Below are positions 1 to 35,786 of a stretch of DNA of 64,000 bases, piece after piece. The stretch is from Tubulanus polymorphus (lineage: Eukaryota; Nemertea; Palaeonemertea; Tubulaniformes; Tubulanidae), in contig NC_134034.1 in assembly GCF_964204645.1 (NCBI RefSeq), positions 1-64,000 of the forward strand, written 5' to 3'. How positions within the stretch are numbered: position 1 is the stretch's first letter; each line of letters begins with the position of its first letter. Position numbers and translations under genes: made by a program. A model generated the notes under the pieces. That model was not told where the DNA came from. It did not search any database and was given only the letters and a program-made list of their open reading frames with translations.

Positions 1-1328
1 ACCCTAACCCTAACCCTAACCCTAACCCTAACCCTAACCCTAACCCTAACCCTAACCCTAACCCTAACCCTAACCCTAACCCTAACCCTAACCCTAACCC
101 TAACCCTAACCTAACCCTAACCCTAACCCTAACCCTAACCCTAACCCTAACCCTAACCCTAACCCTAACCTACCCTAACCCTAACCCTAACCCTAACCCT
201 AACCCTAACCCTAACCCTAACCCTAACCCTAACCCTAACCCTAACCCTAACCCTAACCCTAACCCTAACCCTAACCCTAACCCTAACCCTAACCCTAACC
301 CTAACCCTAACCCTAACCCTAACCCTAACCCTAACCCTAACCCTAACCCTAACCCTAACCCTAACCCTAACCCTAACCCTAACCCTAACCCTAACCCTAA
401 CCCTAACCCTAACCCTAACCCTAACCCTAACCCTAACCCTAACCCTAACCCTAACCCTAACCCTAACCCTAACCCTAACCCTAACCCTAACCCTAACCCT
501 AACCCTAACCCTAACCCTAACCCTAACCCTAACCCTAACCCTAACCCTAACCCTAACCCTAACCCTAACCCTAACCCTAACCCTAACCCTAACCCTAACC
601 CTAACCCTAACCCTAACCCTAACCCTAACCCTAACCCTAACCCTAACCCTAACCCTAACCCTAACCCTAACCCTAACCCTAACCCTAACCCTAACCCTAA
701 CCCTAACCCTAACCCTAACCCTAACCCTAACCCTAACCCTAACCCTAACCCTAACCCTAACCCTAACCCTAACCCTAACCCTAACCCTAACCCTAACCCT
801 AACCCTAACCCTAACCCTAACCCTAACCCTAACCCTAACCCTAACCCTAACCCTAACCCTAACCCTAACCCTAACCCTAACCCTAACCCTAACCCTAACC
901 CTAACCCTAACCCTAACCCTAACCCTAACCCTAACCCTAACCCTAACCCTAACCCTAACCCTAACCCTAACCCTAACCCTAACCCTAACCCTAACCCTAA
1001 CCCTAACCCTAACCCTAACCCTAACCCTAACCCTAACCCTAACCCTAACCCTAACCCTAACCCTAACCCTAACCCTAACCCTAACCCTAACCCTAACCCT
1101 AACCCTAACCCTAACCCTAACCCTAACCTAACCCTAACCCTAACCCTAACCCTAACCCTAACCCTAACCCTAACCCTAACCCTAACCCTAACCCTAACCC
1201 TAACCCTAACCCTAACCCTAACCCTAACCCTAACCCTAACCCTAACCCTAACCCTAACCCTAACCCTAACCCTAACCCTAACCCTAACCCTAACCCTAAC
1301 CTTAACCCTAACCCTAACCCTAACCCTA
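1..1328. repeat. Terminal telomeric repeat array (CCCTAA)n
   Basis: About 220 tandem copies of CCCTAA run from the first base, which is the C-rich strand of a TTAGGG telomere at the left end of a chromosome. Rare variant units occur: CCTAA near 109 and 1127, CCTACCC near 170 and CCTTAA near 1301. The array stops at 1328, where an inverted PLE fragment begins. Long open frames here are translations of the repeat, not genes. Confidence 0.98.
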
Positions 1329-2370: not shown

Positions 2371-3665
2371 ACTATTATCGTATCTACGCGCCAACTCTTG
2401 GAACATACTCTATATAGATCCGGGTGTCAAGTTTCAAATTTCTCTAAAACAGACAGGTTATTTTCGGATAACAATTCTAATGAGATCGCTCAAAAGTATT
2501 AGTAGCTATATTCAAAAACCGCACTATAGGTTGTAGAAGTATAAGAAGTTTATAGGATAAATAATAGTCCACGGACATCAATCACTGTTCACAAGTCACT
2601 CATAATTAGTGACCGATCGGCCACCTGCGCCTCTTGACTAATTATCCGACTCAATTCTATACAAAATCGCAGTTACGACGCCTTCAAACTCATCAGTTTT
2701 TTTCAAAGAACACAGCCCAATATTCCCGATTCTAAAAGAGTTTTATATCACGTATATATTTCAACCTTCGGATTAAAGAAGAGATCATAGTGTTTTTGAA
2801 CCACTCAAACTACGCAAGCTTAAACCGATTTACTGAATACCCGCGCTCCGGTCTGAATATATTTGTCACATATTCAAGTTCACATAGCTTTACTCGATCA
2901 TAATAACTCTAAATAAGCGTAGTTTATCTAATAGAATTATATTTAAGAACTTAGAATTAAAACAGACGTATCAGTAAGACATTTCTATCAAAACTCGTCA
3001 CCCATAATTAGGGCTAATTAACCACCCGCGCTCACTCAGTAATTTAGATCTTACGGGTATAACTTCCTACTAAATCGCCGACGCCGCGCTGTCTAATTCA
3101 TCCAATCTTCGGTAGAATACCGCGTAGATATTTCAAAATCCGCTCTTAAAAGCTTTTGAATACGGAGAAAACTTGATTAACTAAGAACCGGATTTCACCA
3201 TTTACGACTATTTAGTAAACACGCGTATATCGGAATACGCCTCGGCCGCGCACCGCTAATTAACGCGTCTAAACTAATTAGGAATTAAGCAATTTTGAAA
3301 CTGAACTCGGACATATTTCGAACATTCCGGTTCACGTATATTAATAATACATATTCTAGATTTCTCTTTATAGAAAACACTCTGAGTATTTATTAGGTTA
3401 TATCGAAATAAACTTTTCAATTCTATATTAGACACGCCGTTCTTTAGATCTTTAGAACTATACATCAAAGCAAACTATTCAACAGCTAGATCAAGGGCCA
3501 TAATTAGTGCTGTTTTCTAGTCACTCTGGATCAAAGGCATAATTAGTCAGACCCCTAGTTTGTCTATTAGCTTGATCACAGAAGTACAATTAGTCTAGAT
3601 CACAAGGTCTCATATGGTCACTTAACTTCTCACTCAAATACTGTTCACTTGTTGCGCGCTGCGTG

Positions 3666-3696: not shown

Positions 3697-5253
3697 ATGA
3701 TTCCTGCACTGACACTGACGAAGGCAACCTCGCCGAAATATCTGTCAATGGAGCGATCTACTCGAAAGAAGAAACGACCACCAGCTGAGAAGACCAGCAA
3801 GGGCGGAGGACGCCCTGAGCGACACCAGCAACCCGGAATGTCGCCGAAAAATTACTATAGAGCTCTTCAAGTGGCGCACCACCTTGCCCAGTTGAGCTCT
3901 GGTCCGAAAGCGATTCGGAGGAAGAAGGACCATCTGAAGATGTTCCTGCGGCCGGCGGCTTGCACCGAAGCAGTAACGGTGCAGCTGCACGCTGCCGCGG
4001 ACGTCTGGATGGAGACAGTTTCGAAAGAGCTGACCATCCATTACGCTGCCACATTTGTTCAGCTAATGGGTGATCCTCTGCCGGACTGTCTATCAGCACA
4101 GGATGTCGCCCTGACATGGGCCCGGAGGAATTTCGGCTCCCGTCTGAGCCCCGGAACGATCCGGCTTTTCAACATCGCGCTGGATTTGCGGTCGAAATTC
4201 CGCGGTCAGGCTCTGTCTGACAAACTCAGAAATGTCCTATCTAACCCACCTTCTTCCCCTTCTCATTTCAGGTCACACCACCAGGAGGCACCACCGGAGC
4301 CGAAGATTCGTCCGCCGCCGAGACCGAGCCGGAAGATTCGAAAGCCCGCGACGCCGAGGACGCCTGCACCAACCGCAGCCGCGCCCGCCGCGCCCACAGC
4401 GCCTCCTTCTTTTTCTGATTCCAGGTCACCGAGAAGCTACGCGGATGTCACCAGGACGCCACCAACCAAAATGGCGCCACCACCGAGAAGTCCGATGCCG
4501 ACGCCGCCGCCGCCACCAAGAAGTCCGACGCCACCGAGAAGTCCGACGCCGCCGCCTCGAAACCCGACGCCGCCGCCGCAGAGAACGCCGACCGCACCAA
4601 CCAGCAGTCCGACGCCGTCTCTCTGTTCTTCTCTTTCCAGCTCTCCGTCTCATTACAGGTCACCAGGGCGCCTACTGCCAGCGCGAAGTCCGACGCCAAC
4701 ACCGAGACCGATGGCGCCCCAGGAAGTTCGCCGTCATCCGAATACGGGTCGGAAGAAACAGGATTGGAGTCTGCCACCAACCCGGCGACCCATTCTGGTG
4801 ATTGGTGACTCAAATCTGAGTAACATCACATCAAGCCGCCGTCCGGATGACGTCCAGATCGAGAGCTTCCCCGGCTGCAAGATAGCTCATCTCGCCGACC
4901 TGATCGATGCTGTACCGGAGCGCCGAGATCGCCCGGACACGGTGATCATCAGCGTCGGAATCAACAACCGCGACAACAACTTCGAAGCGACCGCCAAGAA
5001 GACCACACAGCGCCTGATCAACGCCGCAGTCAAGAAGTATCAGCACTCGTTCGTCCACTTCGTTCAACTCAACACGACCCGCGAACACCAGCAGTTCGCC
5101 CGGAAGTTCAACGAATTCCTCGAGATTCACGACGACGTCACCGCGATACCACCCATCGATGATCGACGCTTCAGAGTTGTTGGAGACGGGATCCACTGGA
5201 ACCGTGGTACAGCTAACACCCTGCTGGACCACTGGCTCAGTGGTTTAAACTAA
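3697..5253 (+). CDS. PLE ORF1 (copy 1): basic/proline-rich protein with SGNH esterase-like domain
   Basis: 518 aa. Residues 1-60 are rich in Lys and Arg. Residues about 50-190 are predicted mainly helical, with no family recognised. Residues about 195-345 are a proline/serine/arginine low-complexity linker with repeated PPRSPTP-like units. The C-terminal part (about 365-518) looks like an SGNH/GDSL hydrolase: GDSN with Ser372, GINN with Asn423-424, and DGIH with Asp497 and His500 as the candidate catalytic Asp/His. Esterase domains of this kind occur in ORF1 of CR1-type LINEs and some PLE-related elements; their role in retrotransposition is unclear. The frame ends on a slippery heptamer. The ATG at 3697 is the first start, but transcripts beginning there might use Met18 instead. 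Confidence 0.9.
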   Translation: MIPALTLTKATSPKYLSMERSTRKKKRPPAEKTSKGGGRPERHQQPGMSPKNYYRALQVAHHLAQLSSGPKAIRRKKDHLKMFLRPAACTEAVTVQLHAAADVWMETVSKELTIHYAATFVQLMGDPLPDCLSAQDVALTWARRNFGSRLSPGTIRLFNIALDLRSKFRGQALSDKLRNVLSNPPSSPSHFRSHHQEAPPEPKIRPPPRPSRKIRKPATPRTPAPTAAAPAAPTAPPSFSDSRSPRSYADVTRTPPTKMAPPPRSPMPTPPPPPRSPTPPRSPTPPPRNPTPPPQRTPTAPTSSPTPSLCSSLSSSPSHYRSPGRLLPARSPTPTPRPMAPQEVRRHPNTGRKKQDWSLPPTRRPILVIGDSNLSNITSSRRPDDVQIESFPGCKIAHLADLIDAVPERRDRPDTVIISVGINNRDNNFEATAKKTTQRLINAAVKKYQHSFVHFVQLNTTREHQQFARKFNEFLEIHDDVTAIPPIDDRRFRVVGDGIHWNRGTANTLLDHWLSGLN

Positions 5254-5279
5254 GTATTAGTGAGACCAACGGGTCCACT
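5244..5279 (+). promoter_or_regulatory. Predicted -1 ribosomal frameshift signal (copy 1)
   Basis: The last codons of ORF1 read GGT TTA AAC TAA, so T TTA AAC is a canonical X XXY YYZ heptamer in the zero frame, directly before the stop. A -1 slip gives TTT AAA CTA and enters an open frame that runs without a stop into ORF2. Eight nucleotides downstream a hairpin can form: AGTG-A-GACC (5259-5267), loop AACG, GGTC-CACT (5272-5279), with one bulged A. Equivalent heptamers are at 10198, 19130, 24087, 29041 and 33186. Copies 3 and 4 have TTTAAAT, a synonymous change that remains slippery. Confidence 0.75.
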
Positions 5280-7709
5280 ATTGGTGAGTTAAATCAACCG
5301 GAATTAACCAATGCTTCTCTGATTTCTTCCATTTCCAGGTCCGACGAACACGAAGAACCGGCACCGAACCAAGCGCGACGCGATCCGGTCACCGCTCTCG
5401 GGAGCCCGGTGGTCAACCTCACACGTTCACTCCGCCTAAGTCCGGCGCAACATCAGCTACTCCGAAAGGGCCTCACTTATTGCCCGACTCCAAAAATCGG
5501 TTCTGATGCCGCCGCGACCGAGCGCACCAAGGGAGTGTGCCGATTCAACCGGCTAGTGAAACTCGACCATCACTTCCGTGACAAACCGGACCGCGAGGCT
5601 CCGCGTTTCCGTCTGCCCAGCAGTTGGGCTCCGGATGAAATAGAACCAGTAATCGCCGGGTTCTGCAACGACGCGCACGAATTGGCTCAACAAACCAGGG
5701 ATACGCGTCGCGTAAATGATAACCTCACTAAACAGGAACGCGAAGCCCTCCAGCAGCTGCGTGACAACACTAATATTGTCATCAAAGCCGCCGATAAGGG
5801 TTCCGCTACGGTTATCATGGACCGCGACGACTACGTCCACGAAGCCATGCGCCAACTAGCCGATCTCGAGTATTATCAGCCGCTGCAGCAACCGATCTTC
5901 GAACAGACCGGGGAAGAAATTCGCGAAATCATCGAAAATATGGCTCGACGAAAAATCATCCCGCTAAAAACCGCCGAATATCTATTACCGCCCGATAATC
6001 CGAAACAGAGGCAGTTCTATCTGCTTCCCAAAATCCATAAAGAACGCGAGAAGTGGACGGTACCCGATCGCGTACCGCCGGGGAGACCGATCGTCTCCGA
6101 CTGCGGCTCCGAAACCTACGAAATTTCGGAATGGATCGACTACTATTTGCAGCCGATCGCCCGCGGTCACCCGTCGTACGTCAAAGATACCAACCACTTT
6201 CTAGATATTTTGGCCGGTAAACAATTTAGCGCCGATGCGTTACTCGTCACCATGGACATCGATTCGCTCTACACCAACATCCCCCACGAAGAGGGTATCG
6301 CCAGCATCCGACAAGCTCTCCGAGATAACCCGAACCCGGGACGCCCGGATGCCGAGCTGCTGAAACTACTCGAAATCAGCCTGAAGAAAAATGACTTTAA
6401 CTTTAACGAAAACACATATTTACAGGTAAAAGGTACCGCAATGGGTAAGCGTTTTGCTCCTTCTTATGCCAATATCTTTGTAGCCGAATGGGAAAAAGAA
6501 GGTCTGTCCAGAAGCGAACTCCAACCATCGCTATACGCTCGGTTCATCGACGACATCTACGTAGTTTGGGAACACGGCCGCGAAACGTTGATGCAATTCA
6601 TCGACGTCCTACAAACAGTGAGCCGATCCATCAAACTCAAGTTCGAAATCAGCGACACCAGCGTCAACTTCCTGGACGTAACCACTTTCAAAGGCCCGCG
6701 ATTCGAGACAAGTGGCACAGTAGACACCAAAGTCTACTTCAAACCAACCGATTCGCATCAATTACTACATCGATCCTCGTTTCACCCTAAACACACATTT
6801 TCCGGTATAGTTAAAAGTCAAATTCTCCGGTTCCGGCGCATCTGCAATAACGATTCGGACTTACACGCAGCGTCCGGAACCGTCCTTAAAGTACTCAGAG
6901 GTCGTGGCTACAAAGACCGCGAACTGCGACACATCAAAAGCCAAGCTCTACGGCACCACGCCGAACGAGATCTACGAGAACAACAACGGGCCGACGAAGC
7001 GCCGAAAAAGCGTTTACCGCTTATCTTACCTCACTCCGAAGCCAACCGAACCCTAGCCCGTAACATCCGAACCAGATTTACGGAACTGGCTACGGCCACC
7101 GGCCGGTCTGACGAGGTAACCACGGTCACCGCCTACACCAAGCACAAGAGTCTCAAAGATCTCCTAACTTCGTCGCAGCTCAAACCCACGGAGCCACCCC
7201 CTCCCCGAGTCCCCTCTTCACCGCATCGTAACAGAAATACTTCCGTTGTTTCCAATTCTTCTATTTCCAGGTCTACTCAAAGAACTCCGTCAACCCGACG
7301 TCGAGGCACCGAGAAATGCAGAACACCGAGATGTCGTACGTGTCCACTCGTCCGAGAAACAACCGTTTGCCGCAGCCACAACAAAATGCACGCGATCCGC
7401 AGCACAATTAATTGCGCGACCCGTGAAATTGTATACTGCATCGAATGCACCAAGTGCAACATGCTGTACGTCGGCCAAACCGGAATGTCTCTACGAGAAC
7501 GCGTCACTCATCACGTCTCACGCATCAGAACGAAGAATTCGACTCCAGTCTCGGACCACTTCAACCAAGTCGACCACACCCGCGAACACTTTCGGGTGTA
7601 CGGTCTCCAACACCTACCAGGCTCCACGAGACCGATCCGCGAAGCAGCCGAACAAGACTGGATACGACGACTCGACACGAACACGCCCCGAGGCATGAAC
7701 GTCCCGTAG
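5250..7709 (+). CDS. PLE ORF2 (copy 1): reverse transcriptase with GIY-YIG endonuclease
   Basis: Reverse transcribes element RNA and nicks DNA. Residues here are counted from a GTG at 5409, but the frame is open from 5244 and has no ATG before the RT core. RT motifs are characteristic of PLEs: KAADKG, LPKIHK, GRPIVSD, DIDSLYTNIP (catalytic Asp283), GTAMGKRFAPSYAN, and YARFIDDIY (Asp381-Asp382). The stretch from about 540 to 630 is basic. CX4CX2C follows (Cys637, 642, 645). The GIY-YIG nuclease spans about 674-750, with Tyr676, Tyr687 and YVGQTG. Expression is inferred to be as an ORF1-ORF2 fusion of about 1,337 aa by -1 frameshifting. The Cys motif suggests a Neptune/Nematis-like clade, which is unverified. 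No inactivating change is visible. Confidence 0.93.
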   Translation, partial: LSISETNGSTIGELNQPELTNASLISSISRSDEHEEPAPNQARRDPVTALGSPVVNLTRSLRLSPAQHQLLRKGLTYCPTPKIGSDAAATERTKGVCRFNRLVKLDHHFRDKPDREAPRFRLPSSWAPDEIEPVIAGFCNDAHELAQQTRDTRRVNDNLTKQEREALQQLRDNTNIVIKAADKGSATVIMDRDDYVHEAMRQLADLEYYQPLQQPIFEQTGEEIREIIENMARRKIIPLKTAEYLLPPDNPKQRQFYLLPKIHKEREKWTVPDRVPPGRPIVSDCGSETYEISEWIDYYLQPIARGHPSYVKDTNHFLDILAGKQFSADALLVTMDIDSLYTNIPHEEGIASIRQALRDNPNPGRPDAELLKLLEISLKKNDFNFNENTYLQVKGTAMGKRFAPSYANIFVAEWEKEGLSRSELQPSLYARFIDDIYVVWEHGRETLMQFIDVLQTVSRSIKLKFEISDTSVNFLDVTTFKGPRFETSGTVDTKVYFKPTDSHQLLHRSSFHPKHTFSGIVKSQILRFRRICNNDSDLHAASGTVLKVLRGRGYKDRELRHIKSQALRHHAERDLREQQRADEAPKKRLPLILPHSEANRTLARNIRTRFTELATATGRSDEVTTVTAYTKHKSLKDLLTSSQLKPTEPPPPRVPSSPHRNRNTSVVSNSSISRSTQRTPSTRRRGTEKCRTPRCRTCPLVRETTVCRSHNKMHAIRSTINCATREIVYCIECTKCNMLYVGQTGMSLRERVTHHVSRIRTKNSTPVSDHFNQVDHTREHFRVYGLQHLPGSTRPIREAAEQDWIRRLDTNTPRGMNVP

Positions 7710-7823
7710 ACCGCCTCACTACAACAATTAACTCTCACTACTTTTTTACAGGGATAACCCGCTGCCCGTGCACTAGTGGGGTCTCCAAACCTTCGGTTTG
7801 GTCCCCCAACCTCTATCTCTAAA
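7710..7823 (+). promoter_or_regulatory. PLE 3' UTR with terminal hairpin and telomere-complementary tail
   Basis: After the ORF2 stop comes a pyrimidine tract ending TTTTTTACAG, then the block CCCGCTGCCCGTGCACTAGTGGGG (7758-7781), which is shared with the SINEs. Positions 7778-7806 fold into a hairpin: GGGG, CCAAACC, loop TTC, GGTTTGG, CCCC (11 pairs with a TCT/T internal loop). The tail after the hairpin is a degenerate telomeric sequence. It could base-pair with a TTAGGG overhang and be the RT recognition and priming region. Confidence 0.75.
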
Positions 7824-7845
7824 CCTAACCCTAACCCTAACCCTA
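7824..7845. repeat. Telomeric repeat between PLE copies 1 and 2
   Basis: About 3.5 units of CCCTAA separate the 3' tail of copy 1 from the 5' edge of copy 2. Similar short spacers lie between copies 3/4 (about 21711-21725), 4/5 (about 26669-26688) and 5/6 (about 31621-31636). Confidence 0.9.
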
Positions 7846-8650
7846 CTCGATCCTAATAACTCTAAATAAGCGTAGTTTATCTAATAGAATTATATTTAAG
7901 AACTTAGAATTAAAACAGACGTATTAGTAAGACATTTCTATCAAAACTCGTCACCCATAATTAGGGCTAATTAACCACCCGCGCTCACTCAGTAATTTAG
8001 ATCTTACGGGTTATAACTTCCTACTAAATCGCCGACGCCGCGCTGTCTAATTCATCCAATTTTCGGTAGAATACCGCGTAGATATTTCAAAATCCGCTCT
8101 TAAAAGCTTTAGAATACGGAGAAAACTTGATTAACTAAGAACCGGATTTCACCATTTACGACTATTTAGTAAACACGCGTTTATCGGAATACGCCTCGGC
8201 CGCGCACCGCTAATTAACGCGCCTAAACTAATTAGGAATTAAGCAATTTTGAAACTGAACTCGGACATATTTCGAACATTCCGGTTCACGTATATTAATA
8301 ATACATATTCTAGATTTCTCTTTATAGAAAACACTTTGAGTATTTATTAGGTTATATCGAAATAAACTTTTCAATTCTATATTAGACACGCCGTTCTTTA
8401 GATCTTTAGAACTATACATCAAAGCAAACTATTCAACAGCTAGATCAAGGGCCATAATTAGTGCTGTTTTCTAGTCACTCTGGATCAAAGGCATAATTAG
8501 TCAGACCCCTAGTTTGTCTATTAGCTTGATCACAGAAGTACAATTAGTCTAGATCACAAGGTCTCATATGGTCACTTAACTTCTAACTCGAATACTGTTC
8601 ACTTGTTGCGCGCTGCGTGTATAAAAACCCGTGTCTAATCCTAGTTCAGC

Positions 8651-10207
8651 ATGATTCCTGCACTGACACTGACGAAGGCAACCTCGCCGAAATATCTGTC
8701 AATGGAGCGATCTACTCGAAAGAAGAAACGACCACCAGCTGAGAAGACCAGCAAGGGCGGAGGACGCCCTGAGCGACACCAGCAACCCGGGATGTCGCCG
8801 AAAAATTACTATAGAGCTCTTCAAGTGGCGCACCACCTTGCCCAGTTGAGCTCTGGTCCGAAAGCGATTCGGAGGAAGAAGGACCATCTGAAGATGTTCC
8901 TGCGGCCGGCGGCTTGCACCGAAGCAGTAACGGTGCAGCTGCACGCTGCCGCGGACGTCTGGATGGAGACAGTTTCGAAAGAGCTGACCATCCATTACGC
9001 TGCCACATTTGTTCAGCTAATGGGTGATCCTCTGCCGGACTGTCTATCAGCACAGGATGTCGCCCTGACATGGGCCCGGAGGAATTTCGGCTCCCGTCTG
9101 AGCCCCGGAACGATCCGGCTTTTCAACATCGCGCTGGATTTGCGGTCGAAATTCCGCGGTCAGGCTCTGTCTGACAAACTCAGAAATGTCCTATCTAACC
9201 CACCTTCTTCCCCTTCTCATTTCAGGTCACACCACCAGGAGGCACCCACGGAACCGAAGATTCGTCCGCCGCCGAGACCGAGCCGGAAGATTCGAAAGCC
9301 CGCGACGCCGAGGACGCCTGCACCAACCGCAGCCGCGCCCGCCGCGCCCACAGCGCCTCCTTCTTTTTCTGATTCCAGGTCACCGAGAAGCTACGCGGAT
9401 GTCACCAGGACGCCACCAACCAGAATGGCGCCACCACCGAGAAGTCCGATGCCGACGCCGCCGCCGCCACCAAGAAGTCCGACGCCACCGAGAAGTCCGA
9501 CGCCGCCGCCTCGAAACCCGACGCCGCCGCCGCAGAGAACGCCGACCGCACCAACCAGCAGTCCGACGCCGTCTCTCTCTTCTTCTCTTTCCAGCTCTCC
9601 GTCTCATTACAGGTCACCAGGGCGCCTACTGCCAGCGCGAAGTCCGACGCCAACACCGAGACCGATGGCGCCCCAGGAAGTTCGCCGTCATCCGAATACG
9701 GGTCGGAAGAAACAGGATTGGAGTCTGCCACCAACCCGGCGACCCATTCTGGTGATTGGTGACTCAAATCTGAGTAACATCACATCAAGCCGCCGTCCGG
9801 ATGACGTCCAGATCGAGAGCTTCCCCGGCTGCAAGATAGCTCATCTCGCCGACCTGATCGATGCTGTACCGGAGCGCCGAGATCGCCCGGATACGGTGAT
9901 CATCAGCGTCGGAATCAACAACCGCGACAACAACTTCGAAGCGACCGCCAGGAAGACCACACAGCGCCTGATCAACGCCGCAGTCAAGAAGTATCAGCAC
10001 TCGTTCGTCCACTTCGTTCAACTCAACACGACCCGCGAACACCAGCAGTTCGCCCGGAAGTTCAACGAATTCCTCGAGATTCACGACGACGTCACCGCGA
10101 TACCACCCATCGATGATCGACGCTTCAGAGTTGTTGGAGACGGGATCCACTGGAACCGTGGTACAGCTAACACCCTGCTGGACCACTGGCTCAGTGGTTT
10201 AAACTAA
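8651..10207 (+). CDS. PLE ORF1 (copy 2)
   Basis: 518 aa, nearly identical to ORF1 of copy 1. Differences include Thr for Pro in the EAPTEPK segment, Arg for Lys near the GDS domain, and Ser for Cys in the serine-rich stretch. All SGNH motifs (GDSN, GINN, DGIH) are intact. It ends on TTTAAAC followed by TAA. Because ORF2 is missing downstream, this copy could only make ORF1 protein. Confidence 0.88.
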   Translation: MIPALTLTKATSPKYLSMERSTRKKKRPPAEKTSKGGGRPERHQQPGMSPKNYYRALQVAHHLAQLSSGPKAIRRKKDHLKMFLRPAACTEAVTVQLHAAADVWMETVSKELTIHYAATFVQLMGDPLPDCLSAQDVALTWARRNFGSRLSPGTIRLFNIALDLRSKFRGQALSDKLRNVLSNPPSSPSHFRSHHQEAPTEPKIRPPPRPSRKIRKPATPRTPAPTAAAPAAPTAPPSFSDSRSPRSYADVTRTPPTRMAPPPRSPMPTPPPPPRSPTPPRSPTPPPRNPTPPPQRTPTAPTSSPTPSLSSSLSSSPSHYRSPGRLLPARSPTPTPRPMAPQEVRRHPNTGRKKQDWSLPPTRRPILVIGDSNLSNITSSRRPDDVQIESFPGCKIAHLADLIDAVPERRDRPDTVIISVGINNRDNNFEATARKTTQRLINAAVKKYQHSFVHFVQLNTTREHQQFARKFNEFLEIHDDVTAIPPIDDRRFRVVGDGIHWNRGTANTLLDHWLSGLN

Positions 10208-15976: not shown

Positions 15977-16081
15977 CTAACCCTAACCCTAACCCTAACC
16001 CTAACCCTAACCCTAACCCTAACCCTAACCCTAACCCTAACCCTAACCCTAACCCTAACCCTAACCCTAACCCTAACCCTA
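15977..16081. repeat. Interstitial telomeric repeat block
   Basis: About 18 perfect CCCTAA units join the 3' end of the last family A SINE unit to the first family B unit. The SINE tail ends ATACCTAACC and passes into repeat without a visible boundary. Confidence 0.95.
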
Positions 16082-16728
16082 GCGGAGATATAGAGGTGAA
16101 ACCGAGAGCAATCGTCGGTCCGCCCAGGTAGCTCAATCGGTAGAGCAGTCGTCCGGCAAACGAAAGGTCCGGTGTTCGAGTCCCGGTCTAGGTGGTGGAT
16201 TGCTTTTCGGTATCCCTAACTCTAATACCTTCCGGCAGGTGGAGTTAGCCGGCTTTCCCGCTGCCAGTGTCACAGTGGGGTTCTGAAAAGATATCAGTTA
16301 ATTACTCTCGATTAATTGTGGTGGGTTAATCTGAAGAACACAAAAACATTAATTGATACTCTGATTGGTTCCCCTAACCTATACCTCTAAACCTAACCCC
16401 GACCAGTGCCAGGAAAGTGCGGAGATATAGAGGTGAAACCGAGAGCAATCGTCGGTCCGCCCAGGTAGCTCAATCGGTAGAGCAGTCGTCCGGCAAACGA
16501 AAGGTCCGGTGTTCGAGTCCCGGTCTAGGTGGTGGATTGCTTTTCGGTATCCCTAACTCTAATACCTTCCGGCAGGTGGAGTTAGCCGGCTTTCCCGCTG
16601 CCAGTGTCACAGTGGGGTTCTGAAAAGATATCAGTTAATTACTCTCGATTAATTGTGGTGGGTTAATCTGAAGAACACAAAAACATTAATTGATACTCTG
16701 ATTGGTTCCCCTAACCTATACCTCTAAA
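16082..16728 (+). mobile_element. Two tandem SINE units, diverged family B (337 bp)
   Basis: Two units starting GCGGAGATATAGAGG (16082 and 16419) have the same design as family A: A-box-like TAGCTCAATCGG, the loop CCGGCAAACG, B-box-like TGTTCGAGTCC, TTTT, a CTAACTC/GAGTTAG hairpin, and a terminal block CCCGCTGCCAGTGTCACAG...GGTTCCCCTAACC. The body differs from family A by substitutions and small indels. The two units look identical to each other. Confidence 0.88.
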
Positions 16729-16768
16729 CCTAACCCTAACCCTAACCCTAACCCTAACCCTAACCCTA
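16729..16768. repeat. Telomeric repeat between SINE family B and PLE copy 3
   Basis: About six CCCTAA units, ending CCCTA directly before CTCGATCC, the common 5' edge of PLE copies. Confidence 0.92.
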
Positions 16769-17573: not shown

Positions 17574-19139
17574 ATGATTCCTGCACTGACACTGACGAAG
17601 GCAACCTCGCCGAAATATCTGTCAATGGAGCGATCTACTCGAAAGAAGAAACGACCACCAGCTGAGAAGACCAGCAAGGGCGGAGGACGCCCTGAGCGAC
17701 ACCAGCAACCCGGGATGTCGCCGAAAACGTATTATAGAGCTCTTCAAGTGGCGCACCACCTTGCCCAGTTGAGCTCTGGTCCGAAAGCGATTCGGAGGAA
17801 GAAGGACCATCTGAAGATGTTCCTGCGGCCGGCGGCTTGCACCGAAGCAGTAACGGTGCAGCTGCACGCTGCCGCGGACGTCTGGATGGAGACAGTTTCG
17901 AAAGAGCTGACCATCCATTACGCTGCCACATTTGTTGAGCTAATGGGTGATCCTCTGCCGGACTGTCTATCAGCACAGGATGTCGCCCTGACATGGGCCC
18001 GGAGGAATTTCGGCTCCCGTCTGAGCCCCGGAACGATCCGGCTTTTCAACATCGCGCTGGATTTGCGGTCGAAATTCCGCGGTCAGGCTCTGTCTGACAA
18101 ACTCAGAAATGTCCTATCTAACCCACCTTCTTCCCCTTCTCATTTCAGGTCACACCACCAGGAGGCACCCACGGAGCCGAAGATTCGTCCGCCGCCGAGA
18201 CCGAGCCGGAAGATTCGAAAGCCCGCGACGCCGAGGACGCCTGCACCAACCGCAGCCGCGCCCGCCGCGCCCACAGCGCCTCCTTCTTTTTCTGATTCCA
18301 GGTCACCGAGAAGCTACGCGGATGTCACCAGGACGCCACCAACCAGAATGGCGCCACCACCGAGAAGCCCGATGCCGACGCCGCCGCCGCCGCCGCCACC
18401 AAGAAGTCCGACGCCACCGAGAAGTCCGACGCCGCCGCCTCGAAACCCGACGCCGCCGCCGCCGCAGAGAACGCCGACCGCACCAACCAGCAGTCCGACG
18501 CCGTCTCTCTCTTCTTCTCTTTCCAGCTCTCCGTCTCATTACAGGTCACCAGGGCGCCTACTGCCAGCGCGAAGTCCGACGCCAACACCGAGACCGATGG
18601 CGCCCCAGGAAGTTCGCCGTCATCCGAAGACGGGTCGGAAGAAACAGGATTGGAGTCTGCCACCAACCCGGCGACCCATTCTGGTGATTGGTGACTCAAA
18701 TCTGAGTAACATCACATCAAGCCGCCGTCCGGATGACGTCCAGATCGAGAGCTTCCCCGGCTGCAAGATAGCTCATCTCGCCGACCTGATCGATGCTGTA
18801 CCGGAGCGCCGAGATCGCCCGGATACGGTGATCATCAGCGTCGGAATCAACAACCGCGACAACAACTTCGAAGCGACCGCCAGGAAGACCACACAGCGCC
18901 TGATCAACGCCGCAGTCAAGAAGTATCAGCACTCGTTCGTCCACTTCGTTCAACTCAACACGACCCGCGAACACCAGCAGTTCGCCCGGAAGTTCAACGA
19001 ATTCCTCGAGATTCACGACGACGTCACCGCGATACCACCCATCGATGATCGACGCTTCAGAGTTGTTGGAGACGGGATCCACTGGAACCGTGGTACAGCT
19101 AACACCCTGCTGGACCACTGGCTCAGTGGTTTAAATTAA
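17574..19139 (+). CDS. PLE ORF1 (copy 3)
   Basis: 521 aa, three residues longer than in copy 1 because proline codons were added in the GCC-rich linker. Private changes include KTYYRA for KNYYRA, VELMG for VQLMG and RRHPKTG for RRHPNTG. The SGNH motifs are intact. The end reads T TTA AAT TAA, a silent variant of the slip site. The downstream hairpin loses one pair (GGTC to GGCC). Confidence 0.9.
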   Translation: MIPALTLTKATSPKYLSMERSTRKKKRPPAEKTSKGGGRPERHQQPGMSPKTYYRALQVAHHLAQLSSGPKAIRRKKDHLKMFLRPAACTEAVTVQLHAAADVWMETVSKELTIHYAATFVELMGDPLPDCLSAQDVALTWARRNFGSRLSPGTIRLFNIALDLRSKFRGQALSDKLRNVLSNPPSSPSHFRSHHQEAPTEPKIRPPPRPSRKIRKPATPRTPAPTAAAPAAPTAPPSFSDSRSPRSYADVTRTPPTRMAPPPRSPMPTPPPPPPPRSPTPPRSPTPPPRNPTPPPPQRTPTAPTSSPTPSLSSSLSSSPSHYRSPGRLLPARSPTPTPRPMAPQEVRRHPKTGRKKQDWSLPPTRRPILVIGDSNLSNITSSRRPDDVQIESFPGCKIAHLADLIDAVPERRDRPDTVIISVGINNRDNNFEATARKTTQRLINAAVKKYQHSFVHFVQLNTTREHQQFARKFNEFLEIHDDVTAIPPIDDRRFRVVGDGIHWNRGTANTLLDHWLSGLN

Positions 19140-22530: not shown

Positions 22531-24096
22531 ATGATTCCTGCACTGACACTGACGAAGGCAACCTCGCCGAAATATCTGTCAATGGAGCGATCTACTCGAA
22601 AGAAGAAACGACCACCAGCTGAGAAGACCAGCAAGGGCGGAGGACGCCCTGAGCGACACCAGCAACCCGGGATGTCGCCGAAAACGTATTATAGAGCTCT
22701 TCAAGTGGCGCACCACCTTGCCCAGTTGAGCTCTGGTCCGAAAGCGATTCGGAGGAAGAAGGACCATCTGAAGATGTTCCTGCGGCCGGCGGCTTGCACC
22801 GAAGCAGTAACGGTGCAGCTGCACGCTGCCGCGGACGTCTGGATGGAGACAGTTTCGAAAGAGCTGACCATCCATTACGCTGCCACATTTGTTGAGCTAA
22901 TGGGTGATCCTCTGCCGGACTGTCTATCAGCACAGGATGTCGCCCTGACATGGGCCCGGAGGAATTTCGGCTCCCGTCTGAGCCCCGGAACGATCCGGCT
23001 TTTCAACATCGCGCTGGATTTGCGGTCGAAATTCCGCGGTCAGGCTCTGTCTGACAAACTCAGAAATGTCCTATCTAACCCACCTTCTTCCCCTTCTCAT
23101 TTCAGGTCACACCACCAGGAGGCACCCACGGAGCCGAAGATTCGTCCGCCGCCGAGACCGAGCCGGAAGATTCGAAAGCCCGCGACGCCGAGGACGCCTG
23201 CACCAACCGCAGCCGCGCCCGCCGCGCCCACAGCGCCTCCTTCTTTTTCTGATTCCAGGTCACCGAGAAGCTACGCGGATGTCACCAGGACGCCACCAAC
23301 CAGAATGGCGCCACCACCGAGAAGCCCGATGCCGACGCCGCCGCCGCCGCCGCCACCAAGAAGTCCGACGCCACCGAGAAGTCCGACGCCGCCGCCTCGA
23401 AACCCGACGCCGCCGCCGCCGCAGAGAACGCCGACCGCACCAACCAGCAGTCCGACGCCGTCTCTCTCTTCTTCTCTTTCCAGCTCTCCGTCTCATTACA
23501 GGTCACCAGGGCGCCTACTGCCAGCGCGAAGTCCGACGCCAACACCGAGACCGATGGCGCCCCAGGAAGTTCGCCGTCATCCGAAGACGGGTCGGAAGAA
23601 ACAGGATTGGAGTCTGCCACCAACCCGGCGACCCATTCTGGTGATTGGTGACTCAAATCTGAGTAACATCACATCAAGCCGCCGTCCGGATGACGTCCAG
23701 ATCGAGAGCTTCCCCGGCTGCAAGATAGCTCATCTCGCCGACCTGATCGATGCTGTACCGGAGCGCCGAGATCGCCCGGATACGGTGATCATCAGCGTCG
23801 GAATCAACAACCGCGACAACAACTTCGAAGCGACCGCCAGGAAGACCACACAGCGCCTGATCAACGCCGCAGTCAAGAAGTATCAGCACTCGTTCGTCCA
23901 CTTCGTTCAACTCAACACGACCCGCGAACACCAGCAGTTCGCCCGGAAGTTCAACGAATTCCTCGAGATTCACGACGACGTCACCGCGATACCACCCATC
24001 GATGATCGACGCTTCAGAGTTGTTGGAGACGGGATCCACTGGAACCGTGGTACAGCTAACACCCTGCTGGACCACTGGCTCAGTGGTTTAAATTAA
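22531..24096 (+). CDS. PLE ORF1 (copy 4)
   Basis: 521 aa, same predicted protein as ORF1 of copy 3, including the expanded proline linker and intact GDSN, GINN and DGIH motifs. Ends on the TTTAAAT slip site at 24087-24093. Confidence 0.9.
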   Translation: MIPALTLTKATSPKYLSMERSTRKKKRPPAEKTSKGGGRPERHQQPGMSPKTYYRALQVAHHLAQLSSGPKAIRRKKDHLKMFLRPAACTEAVTVQLHAAADVWMETVSKELTIHYAATFVELMGDPLPDCLSAQDVALTWARRNFGSRLSPGTIRLFNIALDLRSKFRGQALSDKLRNVLSNPPSSPSHFRSHHQEAPTEPKIRPPPRPSRKIRKPATPRTPAPTAAAPAAPTAPPSFSDSRSPRSYADVTRTPPTRMAPPPRSPMPTPPPPPPPRSPTPPRSPTPPPRNPTPPPPQRTPTAPTSSPTPSLSSSLSSSPSHYRSPGRLLPARSPTPTPRPMAPQEVRRHPKTGRKKQDWSLPPTRRPILVIGDSNLSNITSSRRPDDVQIESFPGCKIAHLADLIDAVPERRDRPDTVIISVGINNRDNNFEATARKTTQRLINAAVKKYQHSFVHFVQLNTTREHQQFARKFNEFLEIHDDVTAIPPIDDRRFRVVGDGIHWNRGTANTLLDHWLSGLN

Positions 24097-26552: not shown

Positions 26553-27493
26553 ACCGCCTCACTACAACAATTAACTCTCACTACTTTTTTACAGGGATAA
26601 CCCGCTGCCCGTGCACTAGTGGGGTCTCCAAACCTTCGGTTTGGTCCCCCAACCTCTATCTCTAAACCTAACCCTAACCCTAACCCTACTCGATCCTAAT
26701 AACTCTAAATAAGCGTAGTTTATCTAATAGAATTATATTTAAGAACTTAGAATTAAAACAGACGTATTAGTAAGACATTTCTATCAAAACTCGTCACCCA
26801 TAATTAGGGCTAATTAACCACCCGCGCTCACTCAGTAATTTAGATCTTACGGGTTATAACTTCCTACTAAATCGCCGACGCCGCGCTGTCTAATTCATCC
26901 AATTTTCGGTAGAATACCGCGTAGATATTTCAAAATCCGCTCTTAAAAGCTTTAGAATACGGAGAAAACTTGATTAACTAAGAACCGGATTTCACCATTT
27001 ACGACTATTTAGTAAACACGCGTTTATCGGAATACGCCTCGGCCGCGCACCGCTAATTAACGCGCCTAAACTAATTAGGAATTAAGCAATTTTGAAACTG
27101 AACTCGGACATATTTCGAACATTCCGGTTCACGTATATTAATAATACATATTCTAGATTTCTCTTTATAGAAAACACTTTGAGTATTTATTAGGTTATAT
27201 CGAAATAAACTTTTCAATTCTATATTAGACACGCCGTTCTTTAGATCTTTAGAACTATACATCAAAGCAAACTATTCAACAGCTAGATCAAGGGCCATAA
27301 TTAGTGCTGTTTTCTAGTCACTCTGGATCAAAGGCATAATTAGTCAGACCCCTAGTTTGTCTATTAGCTTGATCACAGAAGTACAATTAGTCTAGATCAC
27401 AAGGTCTCATATGGTCACTTAACTTCTAACTCGAATACTGTTCACTTGTTGCGCGCTGCGTGTATAAAAACCCGTGTCTAATCCTAGTTCAGC

Positions 27494-29050
27494 ATGATTC
27501 CTGCACTGACACTGACGAAGGCAACCTCGCCGAAATATCTGTCAATGGAGCGATCTACTCGAAAGAAGAAACGACCACCAGCTGAGAAGACCAGCAAGGG
27601 CGGAGGACGCCCTGAGCGACACCAGCAACCCGGGATGTCGCCGAAAAATTACTATAGAGCTCTTCAAGTGGCGCACCACCTTGCCCAGTTGAGCTCTGGT
27701 CCGAAAGCGATTCGGAGGAAGAAGGACCATCTGAAGATGTTCCTGCGGCCGGCGGCTTGCACCGAAGCAGTAACGGTGCAGCTGCACGCTGCCGCGGACG
27801 TCTGGATGGAGACAGTTTCGAAAGAGCTGACCATCCATTACGCTGCCACATTTGTTCAGCTAATGGGTGATCCTCTGCCGGACTGTCTATCAGCACAGGA
27901 TGTCGCCCTGACATGGGCCCGGAGGAATTTCGGCTCCCGTCTGAGCCCCGGAACGATCCGGCTTTTCAACATCGCGCTGGATTTGCGGTCGAAATTCCGC
28001 GGTCAGGCTCTGTCTGACAAACTCAGAAATGTCCTATCTAACCCACCTTCTTCCCCTTCTCATTTCAGGTCACACCACCAGGAGGCACCCACGGAGCCGA
28101 AGATTCGTCCGCCGCCGAGACCGAGCCGGAAGATTCGAAAGCCCGCGACGCCGAGGACGCCTGCACCAACCGCAGCCGCGCCCGCCGCGCCCACAGCGCC
28201 TCCTTCTTTTTCTGATTCCAGGTCACCGAGAAGCTACGCGGATGTCACCAGGACGCCACCAACCAGAATGGCGCCACCACCGAGAAGTCCGATGCCGACG
28301 CCGCCGCCGCCACCAAGAAGTCCGACGCCACCGAGAAGTCCGACGCCGCCGCCTCGAAACCCGACGCCGCCGCCGCAGAGAACGCCGACCGCACCAACCA
28401 GCAGTCCGACGCCGTCTCTCTCTTCTTCTCTTTCCAGCTCTCCGTCTCATTACAGGTCACCAGGGCGCCTACTGCCAGCGCGAAGTCCGACGCCAACACC
28501 GAGACCGATGGCGCCCCAGGAAGTTCGCCGTCATCCGAATACGGGTCGGAAGAAACAGGATTGGAGTCTGCCACCAACCCGGCGACCCATTCTGGTGATT
28601 GGTGACTCAAATCTGAGTAACATCACATCAAGCCGCCGTCCGGATGACGTCCAGATCGAGAGCTTCCCCGGCTGCAAGATAGCTCATCTCGCCGACCTGA
28701 TCGATGCTGTACCGGAGCGCCGAGATCGCCCGGATACGGTGATCATCAGCGTCGGAATCAACAACCGCGACAACAACTTCGAAGCGACCGCCAGGAAGAC
28801 CACACAGCGCCTGATCAACGCCGCAGTCAAGAAGTATCAGCACTCGTTCGTCCACTTCGTTCAACTCAACACGACCCGCGAACACCAGCAGTTCGCCCGG
28901 AAGTTCAACGAATTCCTCGAGATTCACGACGACGTCACCGCGATACCACCCATCGATGATCGACGCTTCAGAGTTGTTGGAGACGGGATCCACTGGAACC
29001 GTGGTACAGCTAACACCCTGCTGGACCACTGGCTCAGTGGTTTAAACTAA
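27494..29050 (+). CDS. PLE ORF1 (copy 5)
   Basis: 518 aa, very close to copy 2. Basic N-terminus, proline-rich linker and SGNH motifs intact. Ends on TTTAAAC then TAA (slip site 29041-29047), with the full 8-pair downstream hairpin. Confidence 0.9.
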   Translation: MIPALTLTKATSPKYLSMERSTRKKKRPPAEKTSKGGGRPERHQQPGMSPKNYYRALQVAHHLAQLSSGPKAIRRKKDHLKMFLRPAACTEAVTVQLHAAADVWMETVSKELTIHYAATFVQLMGDPLPDCLSAQDVALTWARRNFGSRLSPGTIRLFNIALDLRSKFRGQALSDKLRNVLSNPPSSPSHFRSHHQEAPTEPKIRPPPRPSRKIRKPATPRTPAPTAAAPAAPTAPPSFSDSRSPRSYADVTRTPPTRMAPPPRSPMPTPPPPPRSPTPPRSPTPPPRNPTPPPQRTPTAPTSSPTPSLSSSLSSSPSHYRSPGRLLPARSPTPTPRPMAPQEVRRHPNTGRKKQDWSLPPTRRPILVIGDSNLSNITSSRRPDDVQIESFPGCKIAHLADLIDAVPERRDRPDTVIISVGINNRDNNFEATARKTTQRLINAAVKKYQHSFVHFVQLNTTREHQQFARKFNEFLEIHDDVTAIPPIDDRRFRVVGDGIHWNRGTANTLLDHWLSGLN

Positions 29051-31636: not shown

Positions 31637-33195
31637 TTGATTCCTGCACTGACACTGACGAAGGCAACCTCGCCGAAATATCTGTCAATGGAGCGATCTA
31701 CTCGAAAGAAGAAACGACCACCAGCTGAGAAGACCAGCAAGGGCGGAGGACGCCCTGAGCGACACCAGCAACCCGGGATGTCGCCGAAAAATTACTATAG
31801 AGCTCTTCAAGTGGCGCACCACCTTGCCCAGTTGAGCTCTGGTCCGAAAGCGATTCGGAGGAAGAAGGACCATCTGAAGATGTTCCTGCGGCCGGCGGCT
31901 TGCACCGAAGCAGTAACGGTGCAGCTGCACGCTGCCGCGGACGTCTGGATGGAGACAGTTTCGAAAGAGCTGACCATCCATTACGCTGCCACATTTGTTC
32001 AGCTAATGGGTGATCCTCTGCCGGACTGTCTATCAGCACAGGATGTCGCCCTGACATGGGCCCGGAGGAATTTCGGCTCCCGTCTGAGCCCCGGAACGAT
32101 CCGGCTTTTCAACATCGCGCTGGATTTGCGGTCGAAATTCCGCGGTCAGGCTCTGTCTGACAAACTCAGAAATGTCCTATCTAACCCACCTTCTTCCCCT
32201 TCTCATTTCAGGTCACACCACCAGGAGGCACCCACGGAGCCGAAGATTCGTCCGCCGCCGAGACCGAGCCGGAAGATTCGAAAGCCCGCGACGCCGAGGA
32301 CGCCTGCACCAACCGCAGCCGCGCCCGCCGCGCCCACAGCGCCTCCATCTTTTTCTGATTCCAGGTCACCGAGAAGCTACGCGGATGTCACCAGGACGCC
32401 ACCAACCAGAATGGCGCCACCACCGAGAAGTCCGATGCCGACGCCGCCGCCGCCACCAAGAAGTCAGACGCCACCGAGAAGTCCGACGCCGCCGCCTCGA
32501 AACCCGACGCCGCCGCCGCCGCAGAGAACGCCGACCGCACCAACCAGCAGTCCGACGCCGTCTCTCTCTTCTTCTCTTTCCAGCTCTCCGTCTCATTACA
32601 GGTCACAGGGCGCCTACTGCCAGCGCGAAGTCCGACGCCAACACCGAGACCGATGGCGCCCCAGGAAGTTCGCCGTCATCCGAATACGGGTCGGAAGAAA
32701 CAGGATTGGAGTCTGCCACCAACCCGGCGACCCATTCTGGTGATTGGTGACTCAAATCTGAGTAACATCACATCAAGCCGCCGTCCGGATGACGTCCAGA
32801 TCGAGAGCTTCCCCGGCTGCAAGATAGCTCATCTCGCCGACCTGATCGATGCTGTACCGGAGCGCCGAGATCGCCCGGATACGGTGATCATCAGCGTCGG
32901 AATCAACAACCGCGACAACAACTTCGAAGCGACCGCCAGGAAGACCACACAGCGCCTGATCAACGCCGCAGTCAAGAAGTATCAGCACTCGTTCGTCCAC
33001 TTCGTTCAACTCAACACGACCCGCGAACACCAGCAGTTCGCCCGGAAGTTCAACGAATTCCTCGAGATTCACGACGACGTCACCGCGATACCACCCATCG
33101 ATGATCGACGCTTCAGAGTTGTTGGAGACGGGATCCACTGGAACCGTGGTACAGCTAACACCCTGCTGGACCACTGGCTCAGTGGTTTAAACTAA
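31637..33195 (+). pseudogene. PLE ORF1 (copy 6), start lost and frameshifted
   Basis: The initiation codon is TTG in place of ATG; the next in-frame ATG is codon 18. A single base is missing near 32607 (CAGGTCACAGGGCG for CAGGTCACCAGGGCG). The frame therefore diverts after the SHYRS motif and ends at 32743, before the SGNH domain. The SGNH half remains readable in its original frame (32653-33195) and still ends on TTTAAAC. Confidence 0.88.
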
Positions 33196-35651: not shown

Positions 35652-35786
35652 ACCGCCTCACTACAACAATTAACTCTCACTACTTTTTTACAGGGATAAC
35701 CCGCTGCCCGTGCACTAGTGGGGTCTCCAAACCTTCGGTTTGGTCCCCTAACCTCTATCTCTAAACCTAACCCTAACCCTAACCCT

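What the first reader, a model, noticed from the sequence alone, without database searches (positions are those of the whole stretch)
5244..5279. Coronavirus-type slippery heptamer joins PLE ORF1 to RT/endonuclease ORF2
ORF1 ends T TTA AAC TAA in frame. ORF2 lies exactly in the -1 frame, is open back across the ORF1 stop, and has no ATG before its RT core. A bulged 8-pair hairpin starts 8 nt after the heptamer, the classical spacing. All six copies keep a functional heptamer; copies 3 and 4 have TTTAAAT, changed only at a silent position. Frameshifting is not, to my knowledge, a described expression mode for Penelope-like elements.
Basis: partly seen in the sequence, partly recalled or inferred. 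Interest (0 to 1): 0.92.

Follow-up and report, generated by a model that had tools for sequence, protein, structure and literature searches.

The report
Penelope retroelement uses coronavirus-type ribosome slip
A Penelope-like jumping gene at a ribbon-worm chromosome end carries a coronavirus-type slippery sequence exactly where its first gene ends and its copying-and-cutting gene takes over in another reading frame, relatives keep the same or an equivalent sequence at that spot, and ribosomes are therefore predicted to slip back one base there and make one fused protein, a mode of expression that I did not find described for this class of element.

Summary
ORF1 (3697-5253, SGNH esterase-like) ends T TTA AAC TAA; ORF2 (RT + GIY-YIG) is open from 5217 in the -1 frame, with no ATG before codon 192. 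It is the only in-frame X XXY YYZ site in ORF1. The six window copies are nearly identical and weak evidence alone. Relatives give the strong evidence. A contaminant contig, probably fish, has TTTAAAC at the homologous place, again the only such site in ORF1; its ORF2 has no ATG before codon 371. A second family in the same worm genome (52% identical) has A AAA AAC there. In proteins, 116 of 132 ORF1 relatives read WxxxLN at the end, and 21 of 107 usable ORF2 N-termini read FKL in the matching -1 register; both together spell TTTAAA[C/T]. One relative is fused in frame; another lacks the heptamer and has an ATG. The downstream hairpin is weaker evidence: it loses a pair in window copies 3 and 4. 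Splicing is not excluded but fits badly. A -1 frameshift fusion of 1,337 aa is the best explanation; no RNA, ribosome-profiling or protein data were available.

The parts
1..1328 (.). telomere, (CCCTAA)n: the window begins at a chromosome end
   Evidence: (period 6, 222 copies)
3697..5253 (+). ORF1, 518 aa: helical N-terminal domain, proline-rich linker, C-terminal SGNH esterase-like domain, ends GLN*
   Evidence: profile match to 4c1b, E 1.8e-8, which PMC3905857 gives as the ZfL2-1 ORF1p esterase; predicted fold matches SGNH hydrolases; no Pfam match on its own
5217..5253 (+). 37-nt overlap of ORF1 with the open -1 frame: the only place where a -1 shift can join the two
5244..5250 (+). slippery heptamer T TTA AAC, in phase, directly before the ORF1 stop TAA (5251-5253)
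   Evidence: only in-frame X XXY YYZ site in ORF1
5258..5280 (+). bulged 9-pair hairpin, 7 nt after the heptamer: possible stimulator, weak evidence
   Evidence: -13.4 kcal/mol for the 50 nt, z -2.43, 3 of 200 shuffles as good; copy 3 -8.6, z -0.54
5250..7709 (+). ORF2 as it would be read after the shift (819 aa; open frame from 5217); first ATG at 5817
6234..6644 (+). reverse transcriptase, PF00078 match
   Evidence: E 1.8e-7, 31.5 bits (cut-off 29.6)
7428..7673 (+). GIY-YIG endonuclease, PF01541 match just under the cut-off
   Evidence: E 3.8e-4, 21.1 bits (cut-off 22.6)
7828..7844 (+). telomeric-complement repeats in the element's 3' tail
10198..10204 (+). copy 2 heptamer TTTAAAC (similarity to copy 1 ends 150-200 nt after the ORF1 stop)
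19130..19136 (+). copy 3 heptamer TTTAAAT
24087..24093 (+). copy 4 heptamer TTTAAAT
29041..29047 (+). copy 5 heptamer TTTAAAC
33186..33192 (+). copy 6 heptamer TTTAAAC (ORF1 of this copy is 5'-truncated and frame-disrupted, ORF2 open)
5284..5338 (+). intron-like 55-nt stretch GTGAGT...TTTCCAG, entirely downstream of the ORF1 stop; removing it would not join ORF1 to ORF2

Best explanation
The element is predicted to make its reverse transcriptase/endonuclease as a C-terminal extension of the esterase protein by -1 ribosomal frameshifting on T TTA AAC at 5244-5250. Most ribosomes would stop at TAA (5251) and release ORF1p (518 aa). A minority, with tRNA-Leu and tRNA-Asn in the P and A sites, would slip from TTA AAC to TTT AAA and read on through CTA AGT ATT, giving a 1,337-aa ORF1p-RT-EN protein with the junction ..HWLSGLN|LSISETNGSTIGELNQPE.. 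Shown in the sequence: the heptamer in phase, the 37-nt overlap, the open -1 frame, no ATG before codon 192, and recurrence of the site in relatives. Inferred: that slipping happens, at what rate, and that the fused protein is the working enzyme. The same arrangement is likely the usual expression mode of this esterase-bearing PLE group, with TTTAAAC the commonest slip site and A AAA AAC in at least one family.
For: DNA level, three families. (1) Window family: 54 junction rows in fetched stretches, all TTTAAAC (by coordinates two places are counted twice; window copies 1, 5 and 6 are among them), plus window copies 2-4 (TTTAAAC, TTTAAAT, TTTAAAT). (2) L001: TAT TTA AAC, heptamer at 3119-3125 in ORF1's frame, ORF2 in the -1 frame from 3056, first ATG at codon 371 inside GTAMGKKF, only slippery site in its ORF1. 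(3) L036: GTA AAA AAC GAA TAG, that is A AAA AAC, ORF2 in the -1 frame from 2613, first ATG at codon 188. Protein level: LN at residues +4/+5 after the SGNH-block Trp in 116 of 132 ORF1 relatives, background 0.0047 per position; FKL in 21 of 107 ORF2 N-terminal parts against a shuffle mean of 1.3, maximum 7 in 2000. LN in frame 0 together with FK in frame -1 can only be TTTAAA[C/T]. Register: the -1 reading of the Trp codon (L or M, then G/A/V/D/E) stands four residues before FKL in 15 of 17 with that residue present (second FKL of P0080 left out). FKL lies on both sides of the midpoint root of the RT tree. P0096 has the esterase fused in frame to RT-EN.
Against: No RNA, ribosome-profiling or peptide data. 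The surveys used the best-listed hits only: 120 of 2,692 for ORF2, 15 of 15 and 120 of 167 for ORF1. The hairpin is damaged in copies 3 and 4; downstream folding in L036 is weak (-7.0 kcal/mol) and in L001 only z -1.65 (15 of 200 shuffles). 16 of 132 ORF1 relatives lack LN, and 9 of the 116 with LN have Q, K or W before it, whose codons cannot end in T. Among representatives under 60% identity LN holds in 19 of 28, under 50% in 9 of 16. Of 18 ORF2 N-terminal parts of 46 residues or more, 8 lack FKL. In L001's longer overlap any slippery heptamer turns up by codon sampling in 7.4%. L036's ORF1 has a second in-frame A AAA AAC. L002 has no heptamer. Two families carry an intron-like stretch just downstream.
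Confidence: 0.87

Rival explanations
1. Splicing joins ORF1 to ORF2: an intron removes the ORF1 stop and brings ORF2 into frame; the heptamer is incidental.
For: PLE copies can keep introns (PMC3846280, passages). The window element has one strong donor (5284) and six strong acceptor-like sites, one at 5338; 100 weak frame-joining GT-AG pairs exist in the stretch scanned. Two gene models start in or skip this region (P0001, P0133).
Against: The strong pair 5284-5338 lies downstream of the ORF1 stop and its removal puts ORF2 in the third frame, behind stops. The best-scoring frame-joining intron has a donor that scores 0.0; in L001 the best total is 3.0 (donors from 4700 and 2500 on, acceptors to 5470 and 3260). 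P0001's locus L037 is an old copy with one stop inside the match and a changed acceptor. Splicing gives no reason for LN and FKL being kept in two frames at one spot. In L036 one of two possible splices (50 nt) would bring ORF2 into ORF1's frame behind the TAG, the other (54 nt) keeps the -1 frame.
Confidence: 0.06
2. ORF2 is started on its own, by re-initiation after the ORF1 stop or at a non-AUG or internal site.
For: L002 has TTTATGTTAG at the junction, so an ATG overlapping the end of ORF1. In seven FKL relatives the called ORF2 start is a Met four residues before FKL, at the place of the ORF1 Trp codon.
Against: In the window family, L036 and L001 the first ATG of ORF2 is codon 192, 188 and 371, inside conserved sequence. 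The conserved NL(S/T)..GL.(F/Y).P block lies upstream of that ATG. Re-initiation does not need TTTAAAC.
Confidence: 0.05
3. LN is kept for the esterase fold and FKL merely follows; there is no frameshifting.
For: LN (517-518) sits just behind the last helix of the predicted ORF1 domain (503-515).
Against: LN alone allows 12 codon pairs, but the -1 frame shows FK, which forces TTA AA. The in-frame fused relative P0096 has no LN there (HWIKYTSKF), and L036 has VKN with A AAA AAC.
Confidence: 0.02

Closest known systems
Neptune-like, endonuclease-bearing Penelope-like elements with a GDSL/SGNH esterase (PMC5408684 and PMC3905857, passages)
   Same: RT and GIY-YIG in one ORF, esterase in a preceding ORF; esterases in Neptune-like PLEs of fish and molluscs and in Penelope-like ORF1p are in print
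   Different: the passages seen do not say how the two ORFs are joined; a -1 frameshift site is the new point
Coronavirus ORF1a/1b (TTTAAAC) and retroviral gag-pro (A AAA AAC) -1 frameshift sites (recalled)
   Same: same heptamers in the same phase, short overlap, long downstream enzyme ORF, stop close behind the site
   Different: host element is a PLE; no pseudoknot was tested or shown, and only a modest hairpin here
Athena/Terminon PLEs at bdelloid telomeres (PMC6431247, passages)
   Same: head-to-tail arrays at a chromosome end, a 5'-truncated copy, reverse-complement telomeric repeats at the 3' end
   Different: this element has a GIY-YIG endonuclease and no hammerhead match was found
HeT-A, a Drosophila telomeric non-LTR element whose gag needs frameshifting (PMC5009743, passages)
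   Same: telomeric retroelement with recoding
   Different: other element class; there it is gag itself, not an ORF1-RT fusion

Membership tests
Penelope-like elements, EN+ | PLE-type reverse transcriptase | tested here: met
   PF00078; 2,692 proteins at E <= 0.001 among 7,991 candidates scored, RT blocks aligned with 10 of them. That these are PLEs is recalled family knowledge; few hits bear names, and no PDB sequence matched the ORF2 alignment.
Penelope-like elements, EN+ | C-terminal GIY-YIG endonuclease | tested here: met
   PF01541 E 3.8e-4, 21.1 bits against a cut-off of 22.6; the YVGQT motif aligns with relatives that bear PF01541
Neptune-like PLE | groups with named Neptune RTs | not tested
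   no named Neptune sequence was in hand; the label rests on the esterase association in PMC5408684
SGNH/GDSL esterase ORF1 | SGNH fold with catalytic Ser and the HW..TA block | tested here: met
   4c1b match E 1.8e-8; Foldseek SGNH hydrolases; GDSN and HW blocks aligned. Esterase activity not tested.
-1 programmed ribosomal frameshifting | X XXY YYZ heptamer in the zero frame inside the ORF overlap | tested here: met
   also L001 and L036; not met in L002
-1 programmed ribosomal frameshifting | downstream ORF in the -1 frame without its own start | tested here: met
-1 programmed ribosomal frameshifting | stimulatory RNA structure about 5-9 nt downstream | tested here: inconclusive
   copy 1 z -2.43, copy 3 z -0.54, L001 z -1.65; L036 weak
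-1 programmed ribosomal frameshifting | measured -1 product | not testable with these tools
   needs reporter, ribosome profiling or mass spectrometry
Athena/Terminon | endonuclease-deficient | tested here: not met
   GIY-YIG present
Athena/Terminon | telomeric-complement repeats at the 3' end | tested here: met
Athena/Terminon | hammerhead ribozyme near the 3' end | tested here: not met
   no Rfam match at E <= 1 in 7400-8700

The most novel reading that the evidence does not exclude
Minus-one ribosomal frameshifting is the ancestral way in which esterase-bearing Penelope-like elements make their reverse transcriptase: a TTTAAAC (or equivalent) slip site kept across elements from ribbon worms to fish, traded for A AAA AAC, in-frame fusion or an ATG in side branches. 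That would give this telomerase-related retroelement class a gag-pol-like control of the ratio of ORF1p to ORF1p-RT-EN.
Probability: 0.78. Interest if true: 0.82.

Novelty: new variant of a known kind. Interest (0 to 1): 0.8.

Why it matters
PLEs share ancestry with telomerase (PMC3846280, passages), and how they make their proteins, and in what ratio, is to my knowledge poorly known. A kept frameshift site would mean that ORF1p and the RT-EN are one fused protein in a fixed minority, as in gag-pol, which changes how these elements should be annotated, expressed and reconstituted. It would also explain why gene models and gene callers break these elements at this place, and it makes the expression question testable with a 130-nt reporter.

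Tried and rejected
Splicing: GT-AG pairs that would join the frames were scored with a matrix recalled from textbook frequencies: 100 in the window stretch, best with a weak donor; 45 in L001, none good. The strong 55-nt pair joins nothing. For L036.

Hairpin as main evidence: rejected after folding against shuffles and against windows of the whole element: copy 1 ranks in the best 15%, copy 3 in the best 46%, L001 in the best 1.3%.

Six-copy conservation as main evidence: rejected, copies nearly identical.

P0001 as evidence for splicing: rejected, its locus L037 is an old copy with one stop inside the match and a changed acceptor.

Other DNA sources: IMG/VR scans, phage records and plasmid records gave no relatives; an ORF1 alignment was too variable to scan with. 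L003 (Bathymodiolus symbiont record) shows a PLE without an esterase ORF on its 3.5 kb and was not used; L004 was not examined.

Literature: 'Penelope-like' with 'frameshift' gave 34 papers (listing and abstract starts); passages read in PMC3846280, PMC6431247, PMC4465651 and PMC5408684 speak of frameshift defects or of LTR gag-pol; the other 30 were not opened for this, except PMC5911963 and PMC2582038, seen again only as listings (PMC2582038 is not among the 34). 'Penelope, retroelement, slippery': 0. 'Penelope, ribosomal frameshift, retrotransposon': 2. Further searches, listings only; passages of PMC3905857. The 2016 frameshifting review PMC5009743 has no 'Penelope' in the first 300,000 of 475,107 characters, which is all that is held. 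Four central PLE papers (msab225, msx159, PMC1890498, PMC4209133) are not held, so prior mention there is not excluded.

Full report
What is there. The window starts with 1.3 kb of (CCCTAA)n and is C10:1-64000 of a 267.8-Mb assembly. The best database match to ORF2 is a Tubulanus polymorphus gene, 97% identical over 71% of the query, on a contig of 32,063,560 bases; contig C1 of the window's assembly has exactly that length, and that gene's copy was found on it (L037), so the worm is this nemertean. Six copies of one Penelope-like element lie on the + strand with heptamers at 5244, 10198, 19130, 24087, 29041 and 33186. Copies 1, 3, 4 and 5 have both ORFs open; copy 2 loses similarity 150-200 nt after the ORF1 stop and copy 6 lacks an intact ORF1.

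ORF1 (518 aa) has a helical domain, a proline-rich linker and an SGNH esterase-like domain: profile match to 4c1b, which PMC3905857 gives as the ZfL2-1 ORF1p esterase, and a predicted model (mean pLDDT 74.7, pTM 0.47) whose best Foldseek matches are SGNH hydrolases. Pfam gave no family for ORF1. ORF2 has RT and GIY-YIG matches, the latter just under its cut-off.

The junction. ORF1 reads ..AGT GGT TTA AAC TAA; the -1 frame is open from 5217 to 7709. The first ATG of ORF2 is codon 192 after the heptamer, inside a block conserved in relatives, and the conserved NL(S/T)..GL.(F/Y).P block lies upstream of it. T TTA AAC is the only in-frame X XXY YYZ site among 516 positions of ORF1; sampling ORF1's own codons gives a 1.4% chance for such a site in 12 codons.

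DNA from relatives. A scan of prokaryotic genome contigs gave four records that encode relatives, out of 74 stretches that matched a pattern; they are by inference contaminating animal DNA. L001, filed under Epulopiscium (a gut bacterium of surgeonfish, recalled), holds two tandem copies of an esterase-bearing PLE; ORF2 is 38% identical to the window's in the best segment. Its ORF1 ends TAT TTA AAC TTC AAA GCC CCT TAA, ORF2 is in the -1 frame, its first ATG is codon 371 inside the RT core, and TTTAAAC is again the only slippery site in ORF1; in its 28-codon overlap some slippery heptamer is expected by codon sampling in 7.4%. L002 has the same -1 layout but TTTATGTTAG, that is an ATG in place of the heptamer. 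L003 and L004 were not used.

In the worm's own genome the ORF2 search gave 72 matches, counts being lower bounds. Junctions were sought, by likeness to the window's (up to 22 mismatches in 66 nt), in the 30 loci that came with it and in 30 further stretches: 53 of 60 stretches gave 54 rows, all TTTAAAC; 7 gave none, two of them the second family, whose junction differs. By coordinates two places are counted twice. The stretches do not cover all 72 matches, and the copies are young. Family two (C4:46.5-57.8 kb, L035 and L036, 52% identical in ORF2) ends ORF1 with GTA AAA AAC GAA TAG; ORF2 lies in the -1 frame, with its first ATG at codon 188. A AAA AAC is a canonical retroviral slip site (recalled). 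So the two families differ in the letters but both have a slip site. L036's ORF1 has a second in-frame A AAA AAC upstream at 1578.

Protein survey. Frame 0: 134 ORF1 relatives (P0121-P0254: all 15 and the best 120 of 167, one shared), 132 with the SGNH HW..TA..W block (P0133 and P0136 dropped). LN stands at +4/+5 after the last Trp in 116 of 132; in those 116 ORF1 ends after four more residues in 89 and at once in 9. With relatives thinned to under 60% identity it is 19 of 28, under 50% 9 of 16. Before LN stands Q, K or W, whose codons cannot end in T, in 9 of 116. Frame -1: of the best 120 of 2,692 ORF2 relatives 107 have a usable N-terminal part; 21 hold FKL (shuffles: mean 1.3, maximum 7 of 2000). 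Many of the others are called from a start downstream of the site. Of 18 parts of 46 residues or more, 10 hold FKL; the other eight are IKL (2), PKL, GKL, two without a KL motif, the in-frame fusion P0096 and one mis-parsed row, P0040. LN in frame 0 with FK in frame -1 forces TTTAAA[C/T]. That they are the same bases in one register is shown in DNA for the window and L001, and suggested for the rest by the Trp codon: four residues before FKL stands L or M followed by G/A/V/D/E in 15 of 17 with that residue present (leaving out a second FKL of P0080); where that residue is not the called start, L is found in 6 of 8. FKL occurs on both sides of the midpoint root of the RT tree of 119 rows (quick tree; 22 FKL rows, namely the window, L001 and 20 of the 21).

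Structure downstream. Copy 1: 9 pairs, 7-nt spacer, z -2.43; copy 3: z -0.54; L001: -22.4 kcal/mol, z -1.65, in the best 1.3% of 45-nt windows of its element, against 15% for copy 1 and 46% for copy 3. A C-rich arm in relatives is hinted at by P at the ninth residue after the Trp in 76 of 132 ORF1 tails. I count the structure as inconclusive; pseudoknots were not tested.

Alternatives. Splicing: PLE copies can hold introns (PMC3846280, passages), and the window element has strong acceptor-like sites, but frame-joining pairs have poor donors or poor acceptors and the strong 55-nt pair leads to the third frame. Both worm families have an intron-like stretch behind the site; in L036 one splice choice would leave ORF2 behind an in-frame TAG, the other would keep the -1 frame. 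Re-initiation is plausible for L002 and possible where an ATG lies at the Trp codon. Protein-level conservation of LN alone is countered by FK in the other frame, by P0096 and by L036.

Known or new. Esterase in Penelope-like and Neptune-like elements is in print; frameshifting in PLEs was not found in the searches listed under Tried and rejected, but four central PLE papers are not in the library. Frameshifting at TTTAAAC is a known mechanism and PLEs a known class; their combination, kept across the group, is the new part, hence 'new variant of a known kind'.

Noticed in passing
window 10402-16736: A 353-bp unit with a tRNA-like domain (Rfam tRNA, 15 + 2 matches) stands in 15.8 tandem copies, plus 1.9 copies of a 337-bp version, and carries nearly the same 3' tail (CCCCTAACCTCTATCTCTATACCTAACCCTAA) as the PLE: looks like a tRNA-derived SINE that borrows the PLE's telomeric 3' end. 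ARAGORN called no tRNA there.
   Followed up: partly
window 7828-7844, 26671-26687, about 31635, 35770-35786: PLE copies end in telomeric-complement repeats; at the copy 5/6 border a 5'-truncated copy follows the tail directly, as described for EN-deficient Terminons, although this element has an endonuclease.
   Followed up: partly
window 4271, 4424, 4640, 4658, 5338, 7270: Six strong 3'-splice-site-like segments (acceptor score 11 or more of 205 AG sites) lie in the coding sequence; five of the six encode S..RS peptides. Only one of 160 GT sites is a strong donor (5284).
   Followed up: partly
L036 2706-2759 and window 5284-5338: Both worm families have an intron-like GTRAGT...YAG stretch of 50-55 nt shortly after the slip site; unexplained.
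   Followed up: partly
ORF2 relatives P0003, P0008, P0019, P0026, P0096 against the window ORF2: Two domain orders among relatives: the ..P(H/Y/F)S.. to Y.(K/R)..NL..L segment lies before the GIY-YIG domain in the window element and after it in these relatives.
   Followed up: no
P0121, P0123, P0131, P0135: Some ORF1 relatives carry a precomputed PF08719 domain, by the alignment within the linker region.
   Followed up: no
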